From positions 1 to 43,710 of IMG/VR virus record IMGVR_UViG_3300030118_003960: DNA of 43,710 bases; one strand, 5' to 3'. This document shows positions 1-39,589 of this stretch, one piece after another. This stretch comes from a virus. Within the stretch, counting starts at the first letter, position 1; the number at the start of each line of letters is the position of its first letter. The translations under genes and the position numbers were made by a program. The notes beneath the pieces are model-generated. The model saw only the letters and a list, made by a program, of their open reading frames with translations, did not search any database and was not told the origin of the DNA.

Positions 1-3000
1 ATTTTTGTATAAATAATATTTCCATGTTCCTTTTTTAATTTCTTTTGGAAGTTCTGGCGCTTCAAGTAAAGATTTGTACATTTCATACAAAAACTCACGT
101 GCTAATTTTCCTTGCGATATTGCAGGAGCAGGTAAATATGGATTTGATAAAGGGTCTTGACCAACAACCCATCCTAACATCCAGGAATGAACACCTGCTG
201 CTTCAATAGCATTAAATCTTCTTAAATTCTTTTTAACCCATGTAGTATCTAATTCTCCAGGGTCAGCAGCACCAAGAATTTCATGCCTGTAATTTAAAAG
301 AGCATGACCTAAAATAGCTCCAAGAGCTAAAAATTGGAAATTCCTATGATAGTTACCATTTTTATTATTTTCTCTAAATCCATTGTATATATTATGTGAA
401 GCAGATATAGCTGTTTGTGCATACACAGCAAAAGGTTTTAAAAGTTTACCCATAATTTGCGGTTGATACAATGGGTCAACTGTTCCTTGTGTATTTTGAT
501 GTGAAGCTAACATAATTTTTAATTTAATTCTATCAAGTCTTTTCTGCAACAAAGCTCTATCTTTAACAGAAACATCATTGCCATCTACATCTTTAAATCT
601 TTTAGCAAAAACACCTTTTTCTTTTATTGAAAATTCTGGTTTACTCCAATCAATGTCATAATCAGAAAATCCATATTTTTTAAATAAATCAATTTCACTA
701 AAACCATCTTTTTCTTTAGTATCAGATAATTGATACCTTGTTTTTAATCTATTGATAGCTGCAGCATTTCCTTCTTTAGCTTGTGCCACTAAAAATGGAA
801 GTTCATCTAAAGCTAAAAATATACTTGAAGTTCTTGCAATACCTTCCGTTGTTGGAAATCTCATTGTAGTAAATACTTTTTCTAAAACTTCAGCAAGAAA
901 ATTATCTTCTGCTTCGTTAATAGATACATAACTAATTCCAAGCATACCAGTTTGTTGAGCTTCTAGTCTTTTTCTAAAATCCGTTGCTAAAGCTGTATAA
1001 TATAAAACTTTAGGCAAATCGTAAGCTAAAGAATTTGCTGTAACTCCAATAAGAGCATTTTTTAAAGGTGATGTTGCACCTGATAGATTTGCTCTAACTA
1101 AATATCTATTTGCTCTTCCTAAAGTATTCATTGCTGATTGAAGATATTCTAAGCTTGCATCTGTATTTCTATCTGGCCTTAGTCCTGTTCTTACCTGTAT
1201 TGCTGTTTGTATAAATTCACCAAATTTATTTTTATTCACATCTAATTTTGCTATAACAGATGGTAAGTTGGTTTTAAATTTTAAATTAGGTATGTTAACC
1301 AAATATGGAAAATATTGCAAATTTGCTATAAGTTTTGCTGTTGATGCAGCATAGTTTGGTATATAATTATCATACTTATGTTCATAAACGTCAATAAATT
1401 TTCCTGATTTAGTTTTAATTCTTTCACCTAAATATATTTTTCTTCTTAATAATGTTCTTGGATTTAATCTTGAACCACCAAATTGTTTTTCAAAAGTCCA
1501 ATCTTTATATGCTTCTACTATGCCATCTTCTTTAAATTCATCAATTTGTTCTTTTGTTAGTTTTTTTGTTTTATATTTTTCAGAAGCCATTTCAACAGCA
1601 TATATATTAGCTTGCTTATCAAGTCTGTTTTGTAAATTTAAATTTAATAAATCAACTTCCTTTTTAAATTCTGTAGTTAAAACTCTTGGAACATAAAATG
1701 ATTCTTCTATAAATTTTAAAATTTTTTTAGTTTCCATGCTTTGATATTGAGCATCGTTCATATTAGATTTTAATGCAAGCTTTATAGAGTTCATATTGCT
1801 TGTTGTGTACTCTTTCCAACTTTTACCTATTTTAGATTCAACAGTATCTATTCTATAAATTACTTTATTTGTGCCTTCCATGTTTTTAACATCATATACT
1901 TTATTAAAAAACTTTGTAGCATTTTTTAATCTAGTAGCACCAACTTTATCTTTAGGATTATTTTTAACAAATTCTTTTAATCCATTATAAGCTTGAACAT
2001 CAAGATATTTAATATTATCTTTTATTTCTTTATCAAATAGTATTTTCCCATATTGTACAGCTCTTTTTTTAGGTCTAATTAATGTAGTAGGTTGTGTTAC
2101 CATTCTTCTTAAAATAGGTCTATTTTCTCTTAATGCTTTATCATGTAGCATTATATAAGCTTCTTGTTCAAATTTCTTTAATCTAGCTCCTTCAGATACA
2201 TCCAAAACTTGATGATTCTCTAAATCAGATGCTAATTTTTTTAATTCTGGTTTTTTGATTTTATCTGCAATCATTCTAATTACAGTTGGTTGTTGACCAT
2301 ATAAGTTGGCTTGCATTGCAGTAGTTTTTAAAAATTTTTCTAATCCTTTACCAAAAAACTTATTACTCATTTCAGATAATTTATCTATGTCTAATGAATT
2401 TTTTGTTTTAAGAAAAGGTTCTACGTCTTTTTTTATAGCAGGATTATCATCTATAAATCTTATTAATTCTTTAGTTTGTTCAAATGTTAAATCTAATGGG
2501 TTAATATCTTCCAATGATTTATCAGATGAATAAAATAAATTTTTAATTAAAGTTTTATATTGTTTATCACCAATATTATTGTCTAACAATATGTCTTCTG
2601 CTGTTGTAATGTTTCTATATTTTTTTGCTAAATCTTTTTTATTTGATGCAGTTATATTTTTTAAATCAACTACCATAGATGCAAATTGAGCTAAATCAGC
2701 ACTTGTAACATTTTTATTTAATTTAAATTCACTTGGATTTTCAATACCAACACTATTAGCATAAAATTCCATAAGTCCTTTTGATTCAACTGACCCCATG
2801 TCTGATGTTAAATTATTCCATAAGTTTTTTACAGATTTTAATAGCTTGCCTTTAACTTCATCATTTAAAGTAATATCTTCTTTGCTTGCTTTATTAACAA
2901 AGTTTTTAACAACAGTTTTATCTGGCTTATTACTAATATCTTCTATTGATAATCCTAATTTTTTTGCTCCTTTAGATATTTTTTGTACAACCTGTGTAAC

Positions 3001-6000
3001 ACCTTTTTCTACAGGTGATTCTTGTAATAATTTTTGTTTTTCAACAGCTATTTTAGTTAATAGCTTTTCTTGTGCTTTATGTATATCTCCCCAATTTTCT
3101 CTTTGTGTATAATAATCATCTATAGCTTCTTTTGTTCCATGGCCAGCAATTAATAACATTTGTGATTTTTCAGGGCCAGTTAATTCTAAACTATTAATAA
3201 ATATTTTTTCTATTTCTTTAAATGCTTTTGATTTTACAAATCCATCAGGAAATACTTTTTTACTAGCAGTTGTTAATTTTTGAGCAAATTGTGGAAATAT
3301 TAATTCATTTGGTTTTGATAATTTTTGCAATTGCAATGCTTTATTTTTAGGCAATGTTATTATTCTTTTTCTACCTCTAGCTTTAGCAGCACCACCCTCT
3401 TTCCTTGGTTTTAATAAATCTATATAATATTTATTATTTTGTGAATCAAAAACTATATGTCTTCCTCTTAATGCAGATATTTCTTCAGCACGAATTGGTG
3501 CATAATTTGCTATTAAATCTAAACCTAAATTAAATGTTTTATCTTTTTTCATTAGTGATTTTATTTGAGGAACTTTACTGTAAAATTCTTTTGGTTCAGG
3601 TAGTATTTGTTGTAATTTTTGTGTTCTTAATGCTAAATTATAATCAGCAGTTAATTGTTTTATATATTTGCTTTTTAAAGGATTTTTATTGATATAATTA
3701 TTTTCAAGAAGACCTTTAAATATTTCATTAACATTTGTTGTTGTATTTGGTGATATTTGACCAGTTTTTACTTGTGGTTGTTTTTTTAACCATTCAAAAT
3801 AATTTTCAACATCTTTATTTGTTATTTTTGTTATACTTTTTCTACCACTATGTTTTAACATACGATTTACATCTAACAATCTTTTTCTTAAAACTTCAGG
3901 TGTAAATGTATCTTTCAATATTGCAATATCATATTTATCTTTAATATTACTAGTTACAGATTTTTTATTTACGTATTTATTTAAATCATCTTTTTTAACA
4001 TCTTTTATTAAATTATCATAAGATTGTTTGTTAACAGGTATATCATCACTATAGGGTAGTAATTCTTTCTGTCTTTGTTGCTCTGTTTTTATACCTTTAA
4101 TGTCAGTTTGTATGTCTTTTAATAAAGACACTACTTGTTCTGCAATACTATTATTAGGTTTTTCTACAATATCAATACCTTCGCTTTTAGCAACACTTGC
4201 AGATTTCAATTCACCTGCATCTATTCCTTGCTGTGCTGATTCTTTATCAATAGTAATAACCTCGTTATTCATAGGTTTTCCAGCTTCTAATATAATAACA
4301 TCTTCAGTTGGCCTATGTAATTCAGATTTAACATCTTGTTTTTCAACTTCATTTTTACCATAACCTTGTAATAATGATTGAGCCATATCTTGTTTTATCA
4401 TATCAAACTTGTCAATTGTTTTTTGTTGTGCAAGTAAAACAACTTCTCTTTGCTTTTCTGACAATTTTACATTATTTTCTTTTTCATATCTTTGTATATA
4501 TTCATCTCTACCGTTTTTAGTTTCAATTTGTTGACTTCTATATCCTTGATAACCATTATATCCTAATGGAGTAACGTATGTTAAATATGCAATATCATCA
4601 TCAGATAATTTATTCATTTCTATTTTTGTAAAATCACCATCTTTGTTTTTAACACCTGCTTTATCTAGTATTTTTATTGTGTTATTTAATATTGTACTTA
4701 CATCTTTTAATCCATCTATTGTTTCAATTAAACTTGTTTGTGTATTTATATCTTTATCAAAAAATTCAAAAGGTGTATTTATACCTAAATCTGCTTTAAC
4801 ATTAGCTATGCTTTTGTTCATTAGCTTAGTTTCTGTTGTGCCAAAATTCTTATCAATAAGTTTATTGTTTTGATATTTTATATCTTGAACAATACTTCTT
4901 CTCATATTGTTTAAAGCTTTTGGAAAATTAATATCTCTAGGTGCAGGTAAACCTTCTATTGTTGCATTTTTACTTTTATGCCAATTAGGGTCATTTCTAT
5001 ATTTATATTGAGTTTTAGGTATAAAAGCTTTGTTTATACCCCACATTAATGCCATACTTGGATATTTTGCCATAGTATCAACAGCAAATTTTTTGTAATC
5101 AAAATCACCCTTATCATCGTAATACATAGCTCTTATATCTTTATCTAAAGCCATAGGCATTGTTTGATAAATTAATCCTTGAACTCCAAGTTTAGCTGGC
5201 TCACTTGTTAATGCTCTAGATGTAAAAGTGGCTAAATTCTTTTGACCCATTCTCCATTTAGCATTTGCCCATATATGACCTACTCCCATAGCTTGACCTA
5301 TACCAGTTGTTAAAAGACCAGTTGCAGCCATATCTCTACCACTTTTCCACGAATCAATCAATGTATCCCATGTTTTAATTGAACCATCTCCATTTTGATA
5401 TTTTCCACGTTTCATTCTTTGGTCAGCGGCTGAATTTATTGCACCTAAAGCAAAACCAGTACCTGCAAATCCACCAGTACCAAATGCAAGCCTTTCTGCT
5501 CCTTCTCCTTGCAAATAATCAAAAAGTTTTTTTTGTAATCTTGAGTTTGATTTTGTTTTAGGTATTGTTTTTACAATGTGACCATATCTAGCTTTTGCAA
5601 TCCAATTAGGTATTTTACTTGATAAATTTTTTAAACCTCTAAAACCATAAGTTGTAAACCTACCTGCTAATCCATACCCTGTAAAAAAAGATAAAACCGA
5701 AGCAGGGTCAGAAAAAGAAGCTATAGAAGCAGCAACGTCTTCCATAAAAGTATCGTTATATTTTGAATCATCTACTTCATATAAAGATTTCCCTGTTTGT
5801 ATTTCATATTGTTTTGCAGGTAAAGTTTGATTTAATCCTTGTTTAATGCTTTCTCTTATACCATCATATTTTTTTAAACCAGGAAATAAATCGTATACAT
5901 AATTATTTGTATCTACTAAACCTTCTAAAAATGAACCTACTTTTTTTGTTTTAGATGCAGTTAATTCTCCAAGTGGGTCTCCTACACGACCTAATTCTAA

Positions 6001-6324
6001 TCTCGGTTCTTGATTTATTTCTGTTGAATTTTTATTTATAAGTTCTGTTTGTTGCAATGTAATATCGTCCATTACATCATATAAATGATTTACATTTTGA
6101 GCTGAAGTATCAATGCTTTCAGGGTTAGGATTGTAAGGTTCTAATGGTGGTGGAGCTATTTCTTCATAAGCAGGTAATTCAGGCTTAATATCCTTCATAT
6201 AGTTATAAAGTAATTTATTTTTTTCATATTCTGGTGTTCCATCAGGAATACTATCAGAATAATATTTATTACTTATATCTAGTATTTTTTGTAAATCAAA
6301 ATTTTCAGATAAATTTGCAGACAT
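1..6324 (-). CDS. Giant polyvalent virion protein with embedded tyrosine-recombinase-like domain (partial, C-terminus off window)
   Basis: The frame is open from ATG at 6324 to base 1, so at least 2,108 residues are encoded and the gene continues beyond the window. Residues about 195-360 hold several Gly/Ala-rich hydrophobic stretches (such as AFGTGGFAGTGFALGA). Residues about 805-925 look like a tyrosine-recombinase core-binding (SAM-like) domain. Residues about 926-1090 look like its catalytic domain: Arg I is R945 (APIRAEEISALRG), the beta-hairpin Lys is about K986, the late His is H1062 (IAGHG), and Y1071 lies nine residues after it. The HxxR box is K1036-x-x-E1039. The rest is mostly Lys/Asn-rich helix, with more hydrophobic segments near residues 1968-2015. 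The gene is last in the virion block, directly after internal-virion candidates, where podoviruses encode ejected proteins. The domain assignment is from motifs. The ejection role and the possible loss of catalysis are inference. Confidence 0.85.
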   Translation of the reverse strand, partial: MSANLSENFDLQKILDISNKYYSDSIPDGTPEYEKNKLLYNYMKDIKPELPAYEEIAPPPLEPYNPNPESIDTSAQNVNHLYDVMDDITLQQTELINKNSTEINQEPRLELGRVGDPLGELTASKTKKVGSFLEGLVDTNNYVYDLFPGLKKYDGIRESIKQGLNQTLPAKQYEIQTGKSLYEVDDSKYNDTFMEDVAASIASFSDPASVLSFFTGYGLAGRFTTYGFRGLKNLSSKIPNWIAKARYGHIVKTIPKTKSNSRLQKKLFDYLQGEGAERLAFGTGGFAGTGFALGAINSAADQRMKRGKYQNGDGSIKTWDTLIDSWKSGRDMAATGLLTTGIGQAMGVGHIWANAKWRMGQKNLATFTSRALTSEPAKLGVQGLIYQTMPMALDKDIRAMYYDDKGDFDYKKFAVDTMAKYPSMALMWGINKAFIPKTQYKYRNDPNWHKSKNATIEGLPAPRDINFPKALNNMRRSIVQDIKYQNNKLIDKNFGTTETKLMNKSIANVKADLGINTPFEFFDKDINTQTSLIETIDGLKDVSTILNNTIKILDKAGVKNKDGDFTKIEMNKLSDDDIAYLTYVTPLGYNGYQGYRSQQIETKNGRDEYIQRYEKENNVKLSEKQREVVLLAQQKTIDKFDMIKQDMAQSLLQGYGKNEVEKQDVKSELHRPTEDVIILEAGKPMNNEVITIDKESAQQGIDAGELKSASVAKSEGIDIVEKPNNSIAEQVVSLLKDIQTDIKGIKTEQQRQKELLPYSDDIPVNKQSYDNLIKDVKKDDLNKYVNKKSVTSNIKDKYDIAILKDTFTPEVLRKRLLDVNRMLKHSGRKSITKITNKDVENYFEWLKKQPQVKTGQISPNTTTNVNEIFKGLLENNYINKNPLKSKYIKQLTADYNLALRTQKLQQILPEPKEFYSKVPQIKSLMKKDKTFNLGLDLIANYAPIRAEEISALRGRHIVFDSQNNKYYIDLLKPRKEGGAAKARGRKRIITLPKNKALQLQKLSKPNELIFPQFAQKLTTASKKVFPDGFVKSKAFKEIEKIFINSLELTGPEKSQMLLIAGHGTKEAIDDYYTQRENWGDIHKAQEKLLTKIAVEKQKLLQESPVEKGVTQVVQKISKGAKKLGLSIEDISNKPDKTVVKNFVNKASKEDITLNDEVKGKLLKSVKNLWNNLTSDMGSVESKGLMEFYANSVGIENPSEFKLNKNVTSADLAQFASMVVDLKNITASNKKDLAKKYRNITTAEDILLDNNIGDKQYKTLIKNLFYSSDKSLEDINPLDLTFEQTKELIRFIDDNPAIKKDVEPFLKTKNSLDIDKLSEMSNKFFGKGLEKFLKTTAMQANLYGQQPTVIRMIADKIKKPELKKLASDLENHQVLDVSEGARLKKFEQEAYIMLHDKALRENRPILRRMVTQPTTLIRPKKRAVQYGKILFDKEIKDNIKYLDVQAYNGLKEFVKNNPKDKVGATRLKNATKFFNKVYDVKNMEGTNKVIYRIDTVESKIGKSWKEYTTSNMNSIKLALKSNMNDAQYQSMETKKILKFIEESFYVPRVLTTEFKKEVDLLNLNLQNRLDKQANIYAVEMASEKYKTKKLTKEQIDEFKEDGIVEAYKDWTFEKQFGGSRLNPRTLLRRKIYLGERIKTKSGKFIDVYEHKYDNYIPNYAASTAKLIANLQYFPYLVNIPNLKFKTNLPSVIAKLDVNKNKFGEFIQTAIQVRTGLRPDRNTDASLEYLQSAMNTLGRANRYLVRANLSGATSPLKNALIGVTANSLAYDLPKVLYYTALATDFRKRLEAQQTGMLGISYVSINEAEDNFLAEVLEKVFTTMRFPTTEGIARTSSIFLALDELPFLVAQAKEGNAAAINRLKTRYQLSDTKEKDGFSEIDLFKKYGFSDYDIDWSKPEFSIKEKGVFAKRFKDVDGNDVSVKDRALLQKRLDRIKLKIMLASHQNTQGTVDPLYQPQIMGKLLKPFAVYAQTAISASHNIYNGFRENNKNGNYHRNFQFLALGAILGHALLNYRHEILGAADPGELDTTWVKKNLRRFNAIEAAGVHSWMLGWVVGQDPLSNPYLPAPAISQGKLAREFLYEMYKSLLEAPELPKEIKKGTWKYYLYKN

Positions 6325-6325
6325 A

Positions 6326-7492
6326 TTATAGTTCTTCTAATTCTCTTCTAATTTTTTCTTTTTGTTTTTGTTTTTTTCTTTCATTATCTGAAAGAGCAAA
6401 ATAATTATTTCCTGTCCATCTATAATATTTAGCTTTTTCAAGTTCTATTAATCCTGCATAGCCTCTAGCTTCTTCATCATACATTGTAAATATTTCATCA
6501 TATGTCATCCCATCCATTGAACTTAAATCACTTGCTATTACTTCATTTATATCTTCTTTTGTTGTTCCGTAAATATCTGTCATATCAGCTATAAGAGCAT
6601 TGCTGGTCATAGCAACATCTAAATTAAATGTATCACTACCTTTTAATTGTTGTTTTGCTTGAGTTTGAGCTAATGTTTTTTTAAATTTTTCAATAGCATT
6701 TATCGAGCTATTATGATTTTTAATATTGCTTGTAACATTCTTTTTAACATCTTCAATTCTACTTTCTAATGCTTTTTTATCTCCTGTTAATACAAAAAAC
6801 ATTTCATCATCATTAATTGTTCCTTCAGACCTTATAGCTACTAAAGCTGTTTCTAAAACACTTTTGTAATTATCTATATCATTTTCAATTGCAAAATCTG
6901 CTTTTGGAGATAGACCTTCAGGTTGTGATACAAATTGTAATTTTCCATCTGGATTAAATATAGACTTTGCATCTTTAAAATTATTTATTTTTCTAAGCTC
7001 TTCTTGTATTTTGCTTAAGGTTAAGGTATCAGTAAATTTCTTTTTATTTTCATCGCTTGAAAATACTTCATTAAAATTTGGCAATATAGCATACCCATTA
7101 TCAATAGTTTTTTGATAATTTATAGTATTTCTTGTTTTTTCATTTAGTTCATTATCTTTAGCTATTTTGTTTAATTGTTGAACAGGATTGTCTTGTATAT
7201 TTTTATTTAAAAACGATTGCGTAGAAATTAAAGTAGTTAATTCATTCAATGAAGTTGCACTTTTAATAGCATCTCCATATCCAGTAATTAAATTTTCTTG
7301 ATTAGTCCTTTTATTCTTTAATTTGTTATTTTCTATCTTATTAAAATCAATTTGATTTTGAATCAAGTCTTGCTGTTTTTTATACTCCATTTGTTCTTGA
7401 GCTGCATTTCTTTGATTAATTTGATTTACTATTTGAAGTAATTGATTTAACCCAGCCATTGGGTCTTTTTTCTCAAATCCTTTTATTGCCAT
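6326..7492 (-). CDS. Putative internal virion protein, coiled-coil rich
   Basis: This is a 388-residue protein rich in Gln, Asn and Lys. Long heptad-like helices lie near its N-terminus (about residues 15-75) and again around 245-275. No catalytic motif or signal peptide is visible. Its stop is one base from the start of the giant virion protein, and it has an AAAGGAT ribosome site, so the two are co-translated. Position between tail genes and the giant protein, together with the helical composition, suggests a structural or internal-core protein. No family was recognised. Confidence 0.7.
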   Translation of the reverse strand: MAIKGFEKKDPMAGLNQLLQIVNQINQRNAAQEQMEYKKQQDLIQNQIDFNKIENNKLKNKRTNQENLITGYGDAIKSATSLNELTTLISTQSFLNKNIQDNPVQQLNKIAKDNELNEKTRNTINYQKTIDNGYAILPNFNEVFSSDENKKKFTDTLTLSKIQEELRKINNFKDAKSIFNPDGKLQFVSQPEGLSPKADFAIENDIDNYKSVLETALVAIRSEGTINDDEMFFVLTGDKKALESRIEDVKKNVTSNIKNHNSSINAIEKFKKTLAQTQAKQQLKGSDTFNLDVAMTSNALIADMTDIYGTTKEDINEVIASDLSSMDGMTYDEIFTMYDEEARGYAGLIELEKAKYYRWTGNNYFALSDNERKKQKQKEKIRRELEEL

Positions 7493-20788: not shown

Positions 20789-21421
20789 TTATAATCTAGG
20801 AACAGACAGTACTCTTACTGCTGACCTTCTACTTCTAAACTTTTTAACTTTTGCTTCATACATTTTTCTAAAATAATTTGCAAATTGAAAATCTTCATCA
20901 TTTTCATATAGTCTAGCTTTTACATAACAAACAACAGCATTATGTAATGCACTATCTAATCCTAAATCACTTTGTAAATTATTACCTGTTGCTGTAGCTT
21001 CTTCGTATTTAGAGTGATATGTTATTCTTATTCCATTATCAACAAACAATGATGAAAAAGTTCCTGTTTCATTTGTAGCTGAACTACTAGATGAACGTGT
21101 CATTGTAAAAGTATTTACATTTGTTACAGTAACAGATTGACTAGCTAAATTATCATCATTAAAATTTGTTGTACCAGATATACTTACTCTATCTCCTGTA
21201 ACAAGACCGTGGTCTGCGCTGCATGTAAATGTTATTGTAGTACCTGAACAATCTGCATCACTTATTGTACCGCTTAAATTACCAGCTCCTTGAAATGTAT
21301 CATACTTATCAGATGTGCTATTATCTGTTGATGTAGTATCTTGACATAATATTGCAAGCCTATTATCATCATTATAATAAACAAAATAATCATTAGGGTA
21401 TGTTCTTTTATTTGTTGCCAT
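20789..21421 (-). CDS. Putative head-tail connector or tail adaptor with inserted Ig-like domain
   Basis: This is a 210-residue protein. The N- and C-terminal parts (ending FRKMYEAKVKKFRSRRSAV) match the helical connector type found after the capsid genes of short-tailed marine phages. Residues about 50-120 (HGLVTGDRVSISGTTNFN) form a beta unit of the kind often inserted in virion proteins. Its position after another adaptor and before the tail proteins supports a head-tail joining role. No direct family match can be verified here. Confidence 0.6.
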   Translation of the reverse strand: MATNKRTYPNDYFVYYNDDNRLAILCQDTTSTDNSTSDKYDTFQGAGNLSGTISDADCSGTTITFTCSADHGLVTGDRVSISGTTNFNDDNLASQSVTVTNVNTFTMTRSSSSSATNETGTFSSLFVDNGIRITYHSKYEEATATGNNLQSDLGLDSALHNAVVCYVKARLYENDEDFQFANYFRKMYEAKVKKFRSRRSAVRVLSVPRL

Positions 21422-21430
21422 AATACATCC

Positions 21431-21784
21431 TTACGTTAATGAGTCATCTGCGCCACTAGAATCTGTAAATGTTTCAGCAGTTGAATTAGAATCTGTATCA
21501 GCTTTTAATATTTTATGTGGGTCAGCTAATTTAGGTATCATTACATATCTACCATTTGAATCTAATACTTCAACTCTAAGTATATCAATCATATCATCAG
21601 ATAATGTATACCATCTTTGTTTTGTTTTTAAATCAGTTGTGACTTCTTTTGTATAATGTTGTTTTTTTTCTGATATATCAAGTAATGCATCATTAATTAA
21701 TCTTAGCATATAAGAATCAGAACCTGCACCTACAGATTCATTTACATCATCAATAATATCTTGAACTGTTAAACTTTTTGCCAT
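21431..21784 (-). CDS. Putative head-tail adaptor
   Basis: This is a 117-residue protein: a helical N-terminus (TVQDIIDDVNESVGAGSD...) and then KQRWYTLSDDMIDILRVEVLD, the 'Y-x-LP-x-D-x-x-x-I' pattern typical of gp6-like adaptors that dock on the portal. The Ser/Thr/Asp-rich C-terminus looks disordered. It is encoded between a zinc ribbon and the second connector, as expected for head completion genes. Confidence 0.65.
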   Translation of the reverse strand: MAKSLTVQDIIDDVNESVGAGSDSYMLRLINDALLDISEKKQHYTKEVTTDLKTKQRWYTLSDDMIDILRVEVLDSNGRYVMIPKLADPHKILKADTDSNSTAETFTDSSGADDSLT

Positions 21785-26251: not shown

Positions 26252-28273
26252 TTATTCTCCTTTTTTCTGCAATCTCTCTTGCTTTTCTTGAGCTTGGCTA
26301 CGTACACGTAACTTCTCTGCTTCGAGTTTAACTGCATTTTCTAGTTTACCAACTGCTATAGTATTAGCAGATTTGGTTTTTGACTCTTGTGATTTCAACT
26401 CAGTTTTGAATTTCTCTACTTCACTACGTTTCCTTGCTGAGATTGACTCTCTGTGAGCTGTTTGTAAATCACCTTGTAAATTTTTAACTGCTTGTTGTGC
26501 TTGTTGTAATTGACCTTGCAATTGAGCCACAACATCCATTCTTTTAAGAACACCCTCTTTATCAAAAATATCTGTTTTCATTAAAGCTTCTGTTCTATCA
26601 ATAAGTCCAGCTTGATATGCTTCCATGTATATTGACCATTCACCCCATTTATTTGATGGCATTGTAGAATTACCAATAACATTAATATCATATTGACCAA
26701 TGCTTAAATCATTAATCATTTCATTTATGGCTTGTGATTTATCATTATAAACATTTACCATATATTCACTCATATCATTATTAGGTTGAACTACTCTAAA
26801 TACTTTTTTATACGTATAATGTTCCTTAGCTAAATTATATATTACTTGTCCAAGCCTTCTAAGTGAACCTTCAATATCTCTTAATTTAGATTTACTACGT
26901 CTTTGACCAAAATCTTCTAACATCATTGTAGCTGAAGATGTATTTGGTGCAACAGCACTATTACCTTGCATCATTTCAAATATACCCATATTTAAATCAA
27001 TATACTTCTCAATCAAAGAAGGTAATTGCATAACTGAGTTTGACAAAGGTTGTGGTGATGGAAAATGAGGAGCGCCAAAAGATGGGTCATATTCAATTGT
27101 TGCATTTGGATTAGCCCAACTTCTTTCTAATTCCTCAATATCATCAACACTTCCTTGTGGTATAAGTAATTTTAATCCAGATGATGCTTGCGCATGAGAT
27201 GTAATTAAAGACATTGTTTTATTTAAAAATCTTTGAAAATCTTTATTTTTTCTAACATCACTCATTGGATATGGTGTGTTAGTCCAAATGTTTGGTACAG
27301 GTACAATAGGATATTTATCAGTATTTAATATATATTCATATAAAACTATTTGACCTAATGTACATGTAAGTTTAATTCTTGTTTGCTGTACTTCTACAAC
27401 ATCAATTAATCCATTCTCTAAAGCTTTAGCAATTTTATCATCAGCTAAAAACTTTTCCATATTTTTTGTATCTAATATTCTTTCTTCTCCAGATTGAACA
27501 TCCATAATTCTATAGTAAGGAACTTTAACTTTAGAAAAATATTCTATTAATTGATATTTTTGTGAACCTTCACCTGTATCTTTATCTTTGACATAGTCAG
27601 GTGTAAATGTACCTACTGTTCTTTTATTAAGTGGTGATGGATAGGTGTCATCTTCATAATATGATTCAACAAGGTCAATTAAAAGTTTACCATCTTCTTG
27701 TTCTTCTGATAATTGTGGGTATAAATCTAATAATTGAAATTTTGTAAATATTGTAGATAACATCATTCCTGTAGAATCATCAAAATACTTACTTCGAGCA
27801 TTTGGGTCAACTACAACTCTAAATGGGTCAACATATGTAAATTTAACTTCACCTCTACCATAATCAGCTTCCCTGTCAACATATGCATAAAAATAACCAA
27901 GCCCTGTAACAGAATAATCATGTATAGTTTGTTTAAATACTTCATTACCATCTGATATATTCCATATATAATCCATAACAGTTCTCCAGACAGCTGCTAA
28001 ATCACTATCAGAATCTTCTCTTGGCATTGCAGAAAACTTTGGTGGTTTAGATGTTATAATAGCTTTAAACTGTTCAATAGCTGAATATATCCTATCTAAT
28101 GGTATATTTGATTGATTTCTTTCAGCAAGAGCATCAGCCTCATCTTCAGTAAAGTGATTGCCTAAATAAAAGTCAATATCTTCGCGAGCATGGTCTTCCC
28201 ACTCTTTACGAGCATCTGACCATCTATCCCAAAGTTCTTTAACGTAAGTTGCTTTTTTATCGGATTTAATCAT
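26252..28273 (-). CDS. Portal protein
   Basis: This is a 673-residue protein. The order (large terminase, portal, scaffold, capsid) and the sequence (for example IDFYLGNHF, KPPKFSAMPRE, FTYVDPFRVVVDPNARS) fit a P22-like portal, the dodecamer through which DNA is packaged and ejected. The C-terminal 100 residues are a long Gln/Lys coiled coil (LQGQLQQAQQAVKNLQGDL). The start lacks a recognisable ribosome site, unlike most neighbours. Confidence 0.88.
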   Translation of the reverse strand: MIKSDKKATYVKELWDRWSDARKEWEDHAREDIDFYLGNHFTEDEADALAERNQSNIPLDRIYSAIEQFKAIITSKPPKFSAMPREDSDSDLAAVWRTVMDYIWNISDGNEVFKQTIHDYSVTGLGYFYAYVDREADYGRGEVKFTYVDPFRVVVDPNARSKYFDDSTGMMLSTIFTKFQLLDLYPQLSEEQEDGKLLIDLVESYYEDDTYPSPLNKRTVGTFTPDYVKDKDTGEGSQKYQLIEYFSKVKVPYYRIMDVQSGEERILDTKNMEKFLADDKIAKALENGLIDVVEVQQTRIKLTCTLGQIVLYEYILNTDKYPIVPVPNIWTNTPYPMSDVRKNKDFQRFLNKTMSLITSHAQASSGLKLLIPQGSVDDIEELERSWANPNATIEYDPSFGAPHFPSPQPLSNSVMQLPSLIEKYIDLNMGIFEMMQGNSAVAPNTSSATMMLEDFGQRRSKSKLRDIEGSLRRLGQVIYNLAKEHYTYKKVFRVVQPNNDMSEYMVNVYNDKSQAINEMINDLSIGQYDINVIGNSTMPSNKWGEWSIYMEAYQAGLIDRTEALMKTDIFDKEGVLKRMDVVAQLQGQLQQAQQAVKNLQGDLQTAHRESISARKRSEVEKFKTELKSQESKTKSANTIAVGKLENAVKLEAEKLRVRSQAQEKQERLQKKGE

Positions 28274-38077: not shown

Positions 38078-38224
38078 ATGGAAGATAATACATCTTATTT
38101 AGTCAAAGGAATCGATAAAGACCTTTGGGTAAAATTCAAAGTTAAATGCATCAGAAGCGAACATAAGACAATAGCAGATTGCTTTAGATGGTTTATAAAA
38201 GAGTATTCAAGAGGAAATATTTAG
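38078..38224 (+). CDS. Ribbon-helix-helix (Arc/MetJ-like) regulator
   Basis: This is a 48-residue protein. A short strand (YLVKGID) is followed by two helices (LWVKFKVKCIRSEH and TIADCFRWFIKEY), the pattern of Arc/CopG-type dimeric DNA-binding proteins. It begins the recombination block, directly after two dyads. Its TAG overlaps the next GTG (TAGTG), tying its translation to the exonuclease. Autoregulation is likely but not shown. Confidence 0.6.
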   Translation: MEDNTSYLVKGIDKDLWVKFKVKCIRSEHKTIADCFRWFIKEYSRGNI

Positions 38225-39015
38225 TGATAAGTAAACAAAGTCCAACTGATATTGAAGGAATCTACGATTCATATCTTAATGAATTGCAAGATAAGAACAG
38301 AAGAGAAAGGTACGAGGGTATGGAATCTTGGTATCATGCTTCTGGCGCAGGCTCTTGTTCAAGAAAATTGTATTTTGAATCTGTTGAACAGATAAAACCT
38401 ACAAGTGTTTTTGATGAAAGAACAAAGAGGTTGCTTCAACTTGGTAATTTAATTCATGATGATGTTCAGAAGTCTCTTACGCACGCACGCGCACTTCATA
38501 GAGATATATCTATAGATAATACACAACTTAAAAAAGAAATTAAAAATAAAGAAAAAGATGTGGAATTTTTAGTGGAAGGTGAAGTAAAGATTGATGAGCT
38601 AAATGTTAGAGGTTTTTATGATATAGTTGCAAAACATACAGATGATGATAAACGTATTTATTTGTATGATATAAAAACTTGCGGCGCTTGGTCTTGGAAG
38701 ATGAAGTTTGGTAGGAAAAAAACTTTAAATCCAAGTATTCATTATGAATTGCAGTTAGGCACATATGGGTACGCACTTAAACAACAATTCGGACAATTAG
38801 ATGGTATGTTTCTTTATTATTACAATAAGGATGATTCTAAGATGAAGTGTGTAGAAGTACCACTCACTTATATATCAAGAGCATATCTTTTTTGGAAGAA
38901 TATAAACGATGAACATAAACAAGGGTTACCACAGTTCAGAACTGGAGTATCTCCAGTACAAAAATGGCAATGTAATTATTGTCAATTTAGAGAACATTGT
39001 AACCCACCAACGTAA
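38224..39015 (+). CDS. Cas4/RecB-like PD-(D/E)XK exonuclease
   Basis: This is a 263-residue protein from GTG 38224, chosen for the TAGTG overlap with the regulator gene; an upstream ATG (38188) lies inside that gene. C45 (GAGSCSRKLY) and C250, C253, C259 (CNYCQFREHC) form the four-Cys iron-sulphur pattern of Cas4 and AddB. H78, D133 (GFYD), and D149-x-K151 (YDIKT) form the nuclease core. It would resect DNA ends for the annealing protein encoded next. It stands beside no CRISPR array, so a phage recombination role is expected. Confidence 0.85.
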   Translation: MISKQSPTDIEGIYDSYLNELQDKNRRERYEGMESWYHASGAGSCSRKLYFESVEQIKPTSVFDERTKRLLQLGNLIHDDVQKSLTHARALHRDISIDNTQLKKEIKNKEKDVEFLVEGEVKIDELNVRGFYDIVAKHTDDDKRIYLYDIKTCGAWSWKMKFGRKKTLNPSIHYELQLGTYGYALKQQFGQLDGMFLYYYNKDDSKMKCVEVPLTYISRAYLFWKNINDEHKQGLPQFRTGVSPVQKWQCNYCQFREHCNPPT

Positions 39016-39025
39016 AGGAGTGAAT

Positions 39026-39589
39026 ATGAGTAATACAAAACAAAGCACATTCATGAAACTCTTCAAGACAGACGTAAGCGAATATACACAAAAGAAAGGT
39101 AGATTCAATTACTTGTCTTGGGCATATGCAGTACAAGAGCTTAAACGCGCTTGTCCAAATGCAAGATGGGGTGTAACGAAGGCAGAGGATGGTTCTCCAT
39201 TCTTTAAAACAGATTGCGGTTATTTTGTTGATGTATGGGTAGAAGTTGATGGTGTCTCACTATCGCAAATACATCCAGTATTAGATAATCGAAATCAACC
39301 AATAGAAAAACCAAATGCTTTTCAGATTAATACAAGTCTACAAAGAGCATTAGCAAAAGCAATAGCATTGCATGGATTAGGATTATATATCTTTGCAGGT
39401 GAAGATTTGCCAGAGCCAGATGCTTTATCAGATAAGGAAGCTAAGGATTTATATAAATTAGCAGAACCTCTTGGTAAAGACATTGTAGATAATCTAAAAG
39501 TTAAAGTAAATGAAATGTCGATTCATGCACATAACTACGAAGCATGTGTAGAAAAAGTACAAAACATGATAAAAGAGAAAGGAAAATAA
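39026..39589 (+). CDS. DUF1071/Sak3-like single-strand annealing protein
   Basis: This is a 187-residue protein from ATG 39026, which has an AAAGGAG site. LSWAYAVQELKRACPNARW and NTSLQRALAKAIALHGLGLY match the pattern of DUF1071, a family linked to Sak3-type phage annealing proteins. It would pair complementary single strands after the exonuclease acts. The order of exonuclease, annealing protein and SSB supports this. Confidence 0.8.
   Translation: MSNTKQSTFMKLFKTDVSEYTQKKGRFNYLSWAYAVQELKRACPNARWGVTKAEDGSPFFKTDCGYFVDVWVEVDGVSLSQIHPVLDNRNQPIEKPNAFQINTSLQRALAKAIALHGLGLYIFAGEDLPEPDALSDKEAKDLYKLAEPLGKDIVDNLKVKVNEMSIHAHNYEACVEKVQNMIKEKGK

What the first reader, a model, noticed from the sequence alone, without database searches (positions are those of the whole stretch)
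3040..3930. A complete tyrosine-recombinase fold inside a >2,100-residue virion protein, with the HxxR box changed to KxxE
Seen directly: residues about 805-1090 of the giant protein show a core-binding domain and then catalytic-domain motifs R945, K986, H1062 (IAGHG) and Y1071. At the spacing where HxxR belongs (23 residues before H1062) the sequence is K1036-E-I-E1039. Tyrosine recombinases need Arg II of HxxR, so the domain is either inactive and kept for DNA or protein binding, or uses altered chemistry. An integrase-like domain fused into a probable ejected virion protein would be a new arrangement. It could hold or guide the incoming genome, or bind a host site.
Basis: partly seen in the sequence, partly recalled or inferred. 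Interest (0 to 1): 0.85.

Follow-up and report, generated by a model that had tools for sequence, protein, structure and literature searches.

The report
Recombinase-like domain inside giant phage protein
A family of uncultured marine phages carries a DNA-cutting-and-joining (tyrosine-recombinase) fold in the middle of a giant protein that is probably injected into the host with the genome; most of its active site is preserved by selection, so it may handle the incoming DNA rather than be a dead relic.

Summary
Residues ~797-1100 of the 2108+-residue protein (window 1-6324, minus; cut by the contig end) form a core-binding plus catalytic tyrosine-recombinase (TR) module: integrase profile E 6.7e-9, predicted structure whose best PDB matches are all TR/topoisomerase-IB. 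I recovered 27 distinct giant homologues plus one later; one matches NCBI's "tyrosine recombinase" model almost end to end (E 8e-10). So it is neither a chance match nor an assembly error.

Homologues correct the motifs: Lys is K981 (not K986), Tyr is Y1072 (not Y1071), and HxxR is K1033-x-x-K1036. "KxxE" is a register error; E1039 is unconserved. R945, E948, K981, K1033, H1062 and Y1072 are invariant at 26-47% identity; K1036 is Lys in four lineages and Arg in one; other giants keep Arg II. It is therefore not plainly dead.

The gene ends the late operon; most relatives carry an HExxH motif just downstream; cultured phages have a comparable giant in the same slot. Best reading: an ejected, polyvalent-type protein whose TR/topoisomerase-IB domain engages DNA during entry. 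Catalysis here is undecided; virion location and injection are inferred.

The parts
1..6324 (-). Giant gene, 2108 aa up to the contig end; the 45-47% identical homologue is 2364 aa, so roughly 250 C-terminal residues are probably missing
3700..3936 (-). Core-binding (SAM-like) domain, about residues 797-875
   Evidence: Pfam PF13495 E 5.7e-4 at 819-860; hhalign to integrases; AF2 helices
3085..3612 (-). TR/topoisomerase-IB-like catalytic domain, about residues 905-1080
   Evidence: AF2; VIA: P2 integrase catalytic domain Z 11.3, rmsd 3.2 over 135; HP1 integrase Z 10.2, rmsd 3.1 over 136
3490..3492 (-). R945, Arg I, invariant in class A; followed by invariant E948 (3481-3483)
3382..3384 (-). 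K981, hairpin Lys, invariant in class A (not K986)
3217..3228 (-). K1033-A-F-K1036, the HxxR-equivalent box
3139..3141 (-). H1062 (AGH), invariant in class A
3109..3111 (-). Y1072, putative nucleophile, invariant in class A (not Y1071)
1..2997 (-). C-terminal part, residues 1110-2108, all-helical; weak structural resemblance to T7-type core proteins
   Evidence: AF2 pLDDT 71; VIA rows 1, 2, 4, 13 are podophage core/ejectosome proteins, Z 3.8-5.4, 213-282 residues aligned; no sequence-profile match to gp16
6326..7492 (-). 388-aa protein immediately upstream of the giant; neighbour of unknown function
   Evidence: a gene of a few hundred to 950 aa lies in the same place in relatives

Best explanation
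The protein is a giant late-operon protein of an uncultured marine podovirus-like clade, most likely an ejection protein of the polyvalent kind (a multidomain protein injected with the genome). Between a conserved N-terminal part and a conserved helical C-terminal part it carries a variable module whose core is a tyrosine-recombinase/type-IB-topoisomerase-fold domain, usually followed by an HExxH (zincin-like) motif that the window's clade lacks. The domain would clamp duplex DNA through its core-binding and catalytic halves as the genome enters. Because R945, E948, K981, K1033, H1062 and Y1072 are invariant in the clade and other lineages also keep Arg II, it probably descends from a DNA-cleaving enzyme within this protein family and still places an active-site-like cluster on DNA: either slow topoisomerase-like nicking and resealing, or tight binding. 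Shown here: the fold by profile and prediction, residue conservation, gene position, HExxH motifs. Inferred: virion location, injection, DNA contact, catalysis.
For: Fold. L130's giant matches the NCBIfam 'tyrosine recombinase' model over profile 23-282 of 300 (E 8.1e-10, 38.4 bits; below that model's curated cut-off of 279 bits) and exceeds Pfam's cut-off for Phage_int_SAM_1 (25.1 vs 22.3; its relative L149 too). Active site: 6 of 7 canonical columns invariant where 32 of 330 are (hypergeometric P 3e-6; columns partly chosen on the same alignment, so indicative only). L095, L137 and L097 have KxxR at the HxxR position with a GH histidine and a Tyr downstream. Purifying selection on the TR region, dN/dS 0.23 and 0.28. 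Ejection/polyvalent reading: last gene of the late operon, with a convergent ORF of DnaB-like length behind it in relatives; HExxH in every class B, C and D giant that covers the region; CRP-810 gp35 (2016 aa), beside a gene annotated 'internal virion protein D', has two HExxH motifs and ART-PolyVal E 7e-5, below cut-off; C-terminal part ranks podophage core proteins at the top of VIA.
Against: No mass spectrometry or biochemistry. C-terminal Z of 3.8-5.4 is within the range of unrelated helical matches, and the gp16 profile comparison was negative. Arg II is Lys in the window, a change that usually cripples these enzymes (own knowledge). Class B has no recognisable Arg I and class C no GH histidine. 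L131 lacks the whole module, so it is not essential to every phage of the clade. The polyvalent survey PMC5512222 names no recombinase or integrase in its main text.
Confidence: 0.6

Rival explanations
1. Catalytically dead TR fold used only for DNA (or protein) binding, like the SPbeta repressor MrpR, here anchoring or shielding the genome in the head or at entry.
For: Arg II to Lys in the window; loss of Arg I (class B) or the GH His (class C) elsewhere. Precedent: MrpR keeps 3 of 7 residues, binds DNA and does not recombine (PMC10516654); SroF is among the structural matches.
Against: Unlike MrpR, six of seven positions are invariant here and an Arg II equivalent is retained in L095, L137, L097, L101 and L130. 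Such conservation is not expected for pure binding, although phosphate-contacting residues can be kept for affinity.
Confidence: 0.4
2. Active site-specific recombinase delivered with the DNA, circularising or resolving the genome or integrating it.
For: Core-binding plus catalytic architecture as in integrases. No separate PF00589 match in the window record, and in 26 relative records only one, which lies inside a giant.
Against: No lysogeny genes were recognised among the genes scanned and no att-like site was sought; a single-strand-annealing protein (Sak) and an exonuclease already provide recombination. Many records are partial.
Confidence: 0.15
3. The giant is not a virion protein but a late intracellular enzyme.
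For: No proteomics; the sequence link to T7 gp16 fails.
Against: Position at the end of the structural operon, a conserved upstream neighbour slot, polyvalent-type motifs, and a large protein in the same slot in three cultured phages.
Confidence: 0.12
4. The TR resemblance is a chance similarity of a mostly helical segment.
For: Single-protein Pfam scores are below cut-off for the window; Foldseek PDB E is only 1.9e-3.
Against: Agreement of profile, structure and several homologues, one significant almost end to end.
Confidence: 0.03

Closest known systems
Phage tyrosine integrases (P2, HP1, lambda Int, Cre) and Xer recombinases
   Same: Core-binding domain plus catalytic domain, R-E-K and GH..Y order, predicted fold
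   Different: Embedded in a protein of about 2100 to 2800 residues; HxxR is KxxK; no known att site
Type IB topoisomerases (poxvirus, Deinococcus, human TOP1)
   Same: Same superfamily; structural matches Z 8-9; a Lys where TRs have the first His of HxxR (own knowledge of vaccinia K220/R223)
   Different: Has an integrase-type core-binding domain; Arg II is Lys in the window clade; part of a giant protein
Polyvalent proteins of phages and conjugative elements (PMC5512222)
   Same: Very large multidomain late proteins predicted to be injected, often with a zincin-like metallopeptidase
   Different: No TR/integrase domain named in that paper's main text; the window clade itself lacks the HExxH motif
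MrpR/YopR of SPbeta and SroF of phi3T
   Same: TR fold in a phage protein that is not an integrase
   Different: Stand-alone repressors; MrpR lacks most catalytic residues, the window clade keeps six of seven positions invariant
T7 gp16 and N4 virion RNA polymerase
   Same: Giant internal virion proteins; N4 ejects a giant RNA polymerase (PMC12633501 abstract)
   Different: No sequence match to gp16; the extra domain is a TR fold

Membership tests
Tyrosine recombinase / topoisomerase IB superfamily (fold) | SAM-like core-binding domain followed by the mixed alpha/beta catalytic fold | tested here: met
Tyrosine recombinase / topoisomerase IB superfamily (fold) | Arg I, hairpin Lys, GH-type His, nucleophilic Tyr in order | tested here: met
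   R945, K981, H1062, Y1072 invariant in class A
Active tyrosine recombinase | Second Arg (HxxR) | tested here: not met
   K1036 in the window and three other class A lineages; Arg in L095 and several distant giants
Active tyrosine recombinase | DNA cleavage, strand exchange, recognition site | not testable with these tools
   needs purified protein
Active tyrosine recombinase | Catalytic residues cluster in one pocket | not testable with these tools
   model coordinates are not exposed
Polyvalent proteins | Several disparate domains in one very large protein | tested here: inconclusive
   TR domain plus, in classes B-D, an HExxH motif; HExxH is a motif only, no peptidase model matched in the marine giants, and class A lacks it
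Polyvalent proteins | Sequence match to a named polyvalent domain | tested here: inconclusive
   none in the marine giants scanned; ART-PolyVal E 7e-5, below cut-off, in the positional counterpart of CRP-810
Polyvalent proteins | Packaged and injected | not testable with these tools
   needs virion proteomics; gene position only
T7 gp16-like ejection protein | Sequence-profile similarity | tested here: not met
   hhalign Prob 0.3
T7 gp16-like ejection protein | Fold similarity of the C-terminal half | tested here: inconclusive
   core-protein rows at ranks 1, 2, 4, 13, Z 3.8-5.4

The most novel reading that the evidence does not exclude
An ejected phage protein with a working tyrosine-recombinase/topoisomerase-IB active site (KxxK or KxxR variant) that cleaves and reseals the phage genome as it enters the cell, an enzyme type not previously described as part of a DNA-ejection machine.
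Probability: 0.25. Interest if true: 0.82.

Novelty: new variant of a known kind. Interest (0 to 1): 0.62.

Why it matters
Known giant ejected proteins carry enzymes such as RNA polymerase, lytic transglycosylase or ADP-ribosyltransferase. A recombinase/topoisomerase fold there would be a new kind of cargo and suggests that DNA topology or genome ends are handled by the ejection apparatus. The family also offers natural variants (KxxR, KxxK, DxxR, YxxR, loss of Arg I, loss of His) for testing how a TR active site changes into a binding domain.

Tried and rejected
Frameshift or assembly artefact: rejected, since many independent contigs carry the module in one ORF. Direct searches with the giant or its TR domain in IMG/VR found nothing; relatives came through the portal protein and then alignments. 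No relative in GTDB genome contigs by pattern scan. tblastn of the giant in INPHARED gave only a weak match to an ordinary integrase (E 0.1). Sequence search of PDB with the TR profile gave mostly Cre but at E 0.6 or worse. A class B Arg I was looked for in the alignment and not seen. hhalign of single giants against integrases detected the TR only in class A. T7 gp16 and gp15 profiles: negative. Foldseek for the C-terminal half: no significant match. A late second Arg I-like box (TGPRLNEV) in class B was noticed; whether it marks another domain was not resolved.

Full report
What was checked. The window is a whole IMG/VR virus record of 43,710 bp. The finding lies in a minus-strand ORF covering 1-6324, 2108 residues, open at the window's first base.

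The fold. By itself the window protein gives only a sub-threshold Pfam match to an integrase core-binding domain (PF13495, E 5.7e-4). Homologues make the case. The portal protein found 241 relatives in IMG/VR, and long records among them, then alignment-based searches, yielded 27 distinct giant proteins or fragments, with L149 found later. A profile of seven class A TR regions against four integrases (lambda, CRP-810 gp14, two from MT839295) gives Prob 95.8 and E 6.7e-9, a capsid-protein control Prob 0.07. AlphaFold2 on that alignment: pLDDT 80.6, pTM 0.65. Its best PDB matches are Cre, Brujita integrase, the integron integrase and variola topoisomerase; VIA aligns P2 integrase's catalytic domain at 3.2 A over 135 residues, Z 11.3. 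The distant giant L130 matches the NCBIfam tyrosine recombinase model over residues 675-964, E 8.1e-10, and passes Pfam's cut-off for Phage_int_SAM_1. G004's giant has its own weak PF00589 match (E 8.4e-4).

The active site. Class A means the window's clade: window, L093, L114/L109, L095, L112/L110. In these five lineages (26-47% identical to the window) R945, E948, K981, G984, R987, K1033, H1062 and Y1072 are invariant. hhalign sets K981-A-R-G-R-K-R-I-I-T-L-P against the integrase K-T-G-A-G-R-R-I-I-K-L-P, the same length in both. Position 1036 is Lys in four lineages and Arg in L095; 1039 varies. The HxxR equivalent is therefore KxxK in the window and KxxR in L095, L137 and L097; L101 has YxxR and L130 DxxR. 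Type IB topoisomerases also have Lys at the first position (own knowledge). Class B keeps the Lys, a second Arg, mostly GH, and Tyr, but no clear Arg I; class C keeps Arg I, Lys and a Tyr but no GH. The assignments in classes B, C and D rest on alignment of very divergent sequences and are less certain than those in class A. TR-region dN/dS is 0.23 for L114/L109 and 0.28 for L130/L149.

The protein around it. Portal, SU10-type capsid protein, terminase and tail-adaptor matches place the giant at the end of the late operon; in relatives a convergent ORF, mostly 441-451 aa, follows, which is the length of the window's DnaB helicase (446 aa); its identity in the relatives was not tested. After the TR module, all class B, C and D giants that reach that region carry HExxH; class A, L097, L132 and L131 do not. 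L131 keeps the N- and C-terminal parts but replaces the module. Among cultured phages with related capsids, CRP-810 gp35 (2016 aa) lies next to 'internal virion protein D', has two HExxH motifs and a sub-threshold ART-PolyVal match; Mel-JY34 has an 1894-aa protein with HExxH. Homology of these to the marine giants by sequence is not established. The predicted C-terminal half is all-helical; the longest VIA alignments (213-282 residues) are to core proteins of podophages PhiM1, E1004 and T7, at Z of only 3.8-5.4, and the gp16 sequence profile does not match.

Interpretation. A TR-fold domain in a giant late-operon protein of this phage clade is firmly supported. That the protein is ejected is likely but indirect. 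Whether the window's copy cuts DNA is open: the conserved set argues against simple decay, the Arg II to Lys change argues for reduced or no catalysis. MrpR shows that a TR fold can serve as a DNA-binding protein in a phage (PMC10516654). The polyvalent survey (PMC5512222) does not mention recombinases or integrases in its main text, and no paper in the open library holds both 'tyrosine recombinase' and 'ejection protein'; subscription literature was not searched.

Limits. The clade is known here from metagenome contigs only. The gene is incomplete in the window. Invariant-column statistics use an alignment from which some motif columns were recognised. Model coordinates could not be measured.

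Noticed in passing
window 20789-21421 and 21431-21784: The SU10_adaptor Pfam match is split over two neighbouring ORFs (profile 114-192 and 2-76): a split gene, frameshift or two-gene adaptor.
   Followed up: no
window 38188-39589: A PD-(D/E)XK/Cas4-like exonuclease ORF overlaps a Sak single-strand-annealing protein ORF in another frame.
   Followed up: no
window 26252-28273 versus 1-6324: The portal is 77-100% identical among the 80 relatives kept, while the giant falls to about 20-25% in some of the same records: very unequal rates.
   Followed up: partly
L130/L149 giant, residues 660-970: dS in the TR region is 0.08 against 0.43 and 0.50 in the flanks, suggesting the module was recently exchanged by recombination.
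   Followed up: partly
L131:9001-13911: Complete 1637-aa giant in which the TR and HExxH module is replaced by unrelated residues between the conserved N- and C-terminal parts.
   Followed up: partly
L121 residue ~1034, L124 residue ~1027 and other class B giants: An Arg I-like box (TGPRLNEV/I) lies after the GH..Y motif; it might mark a second, partial TR-like domain.
   Followed up: no
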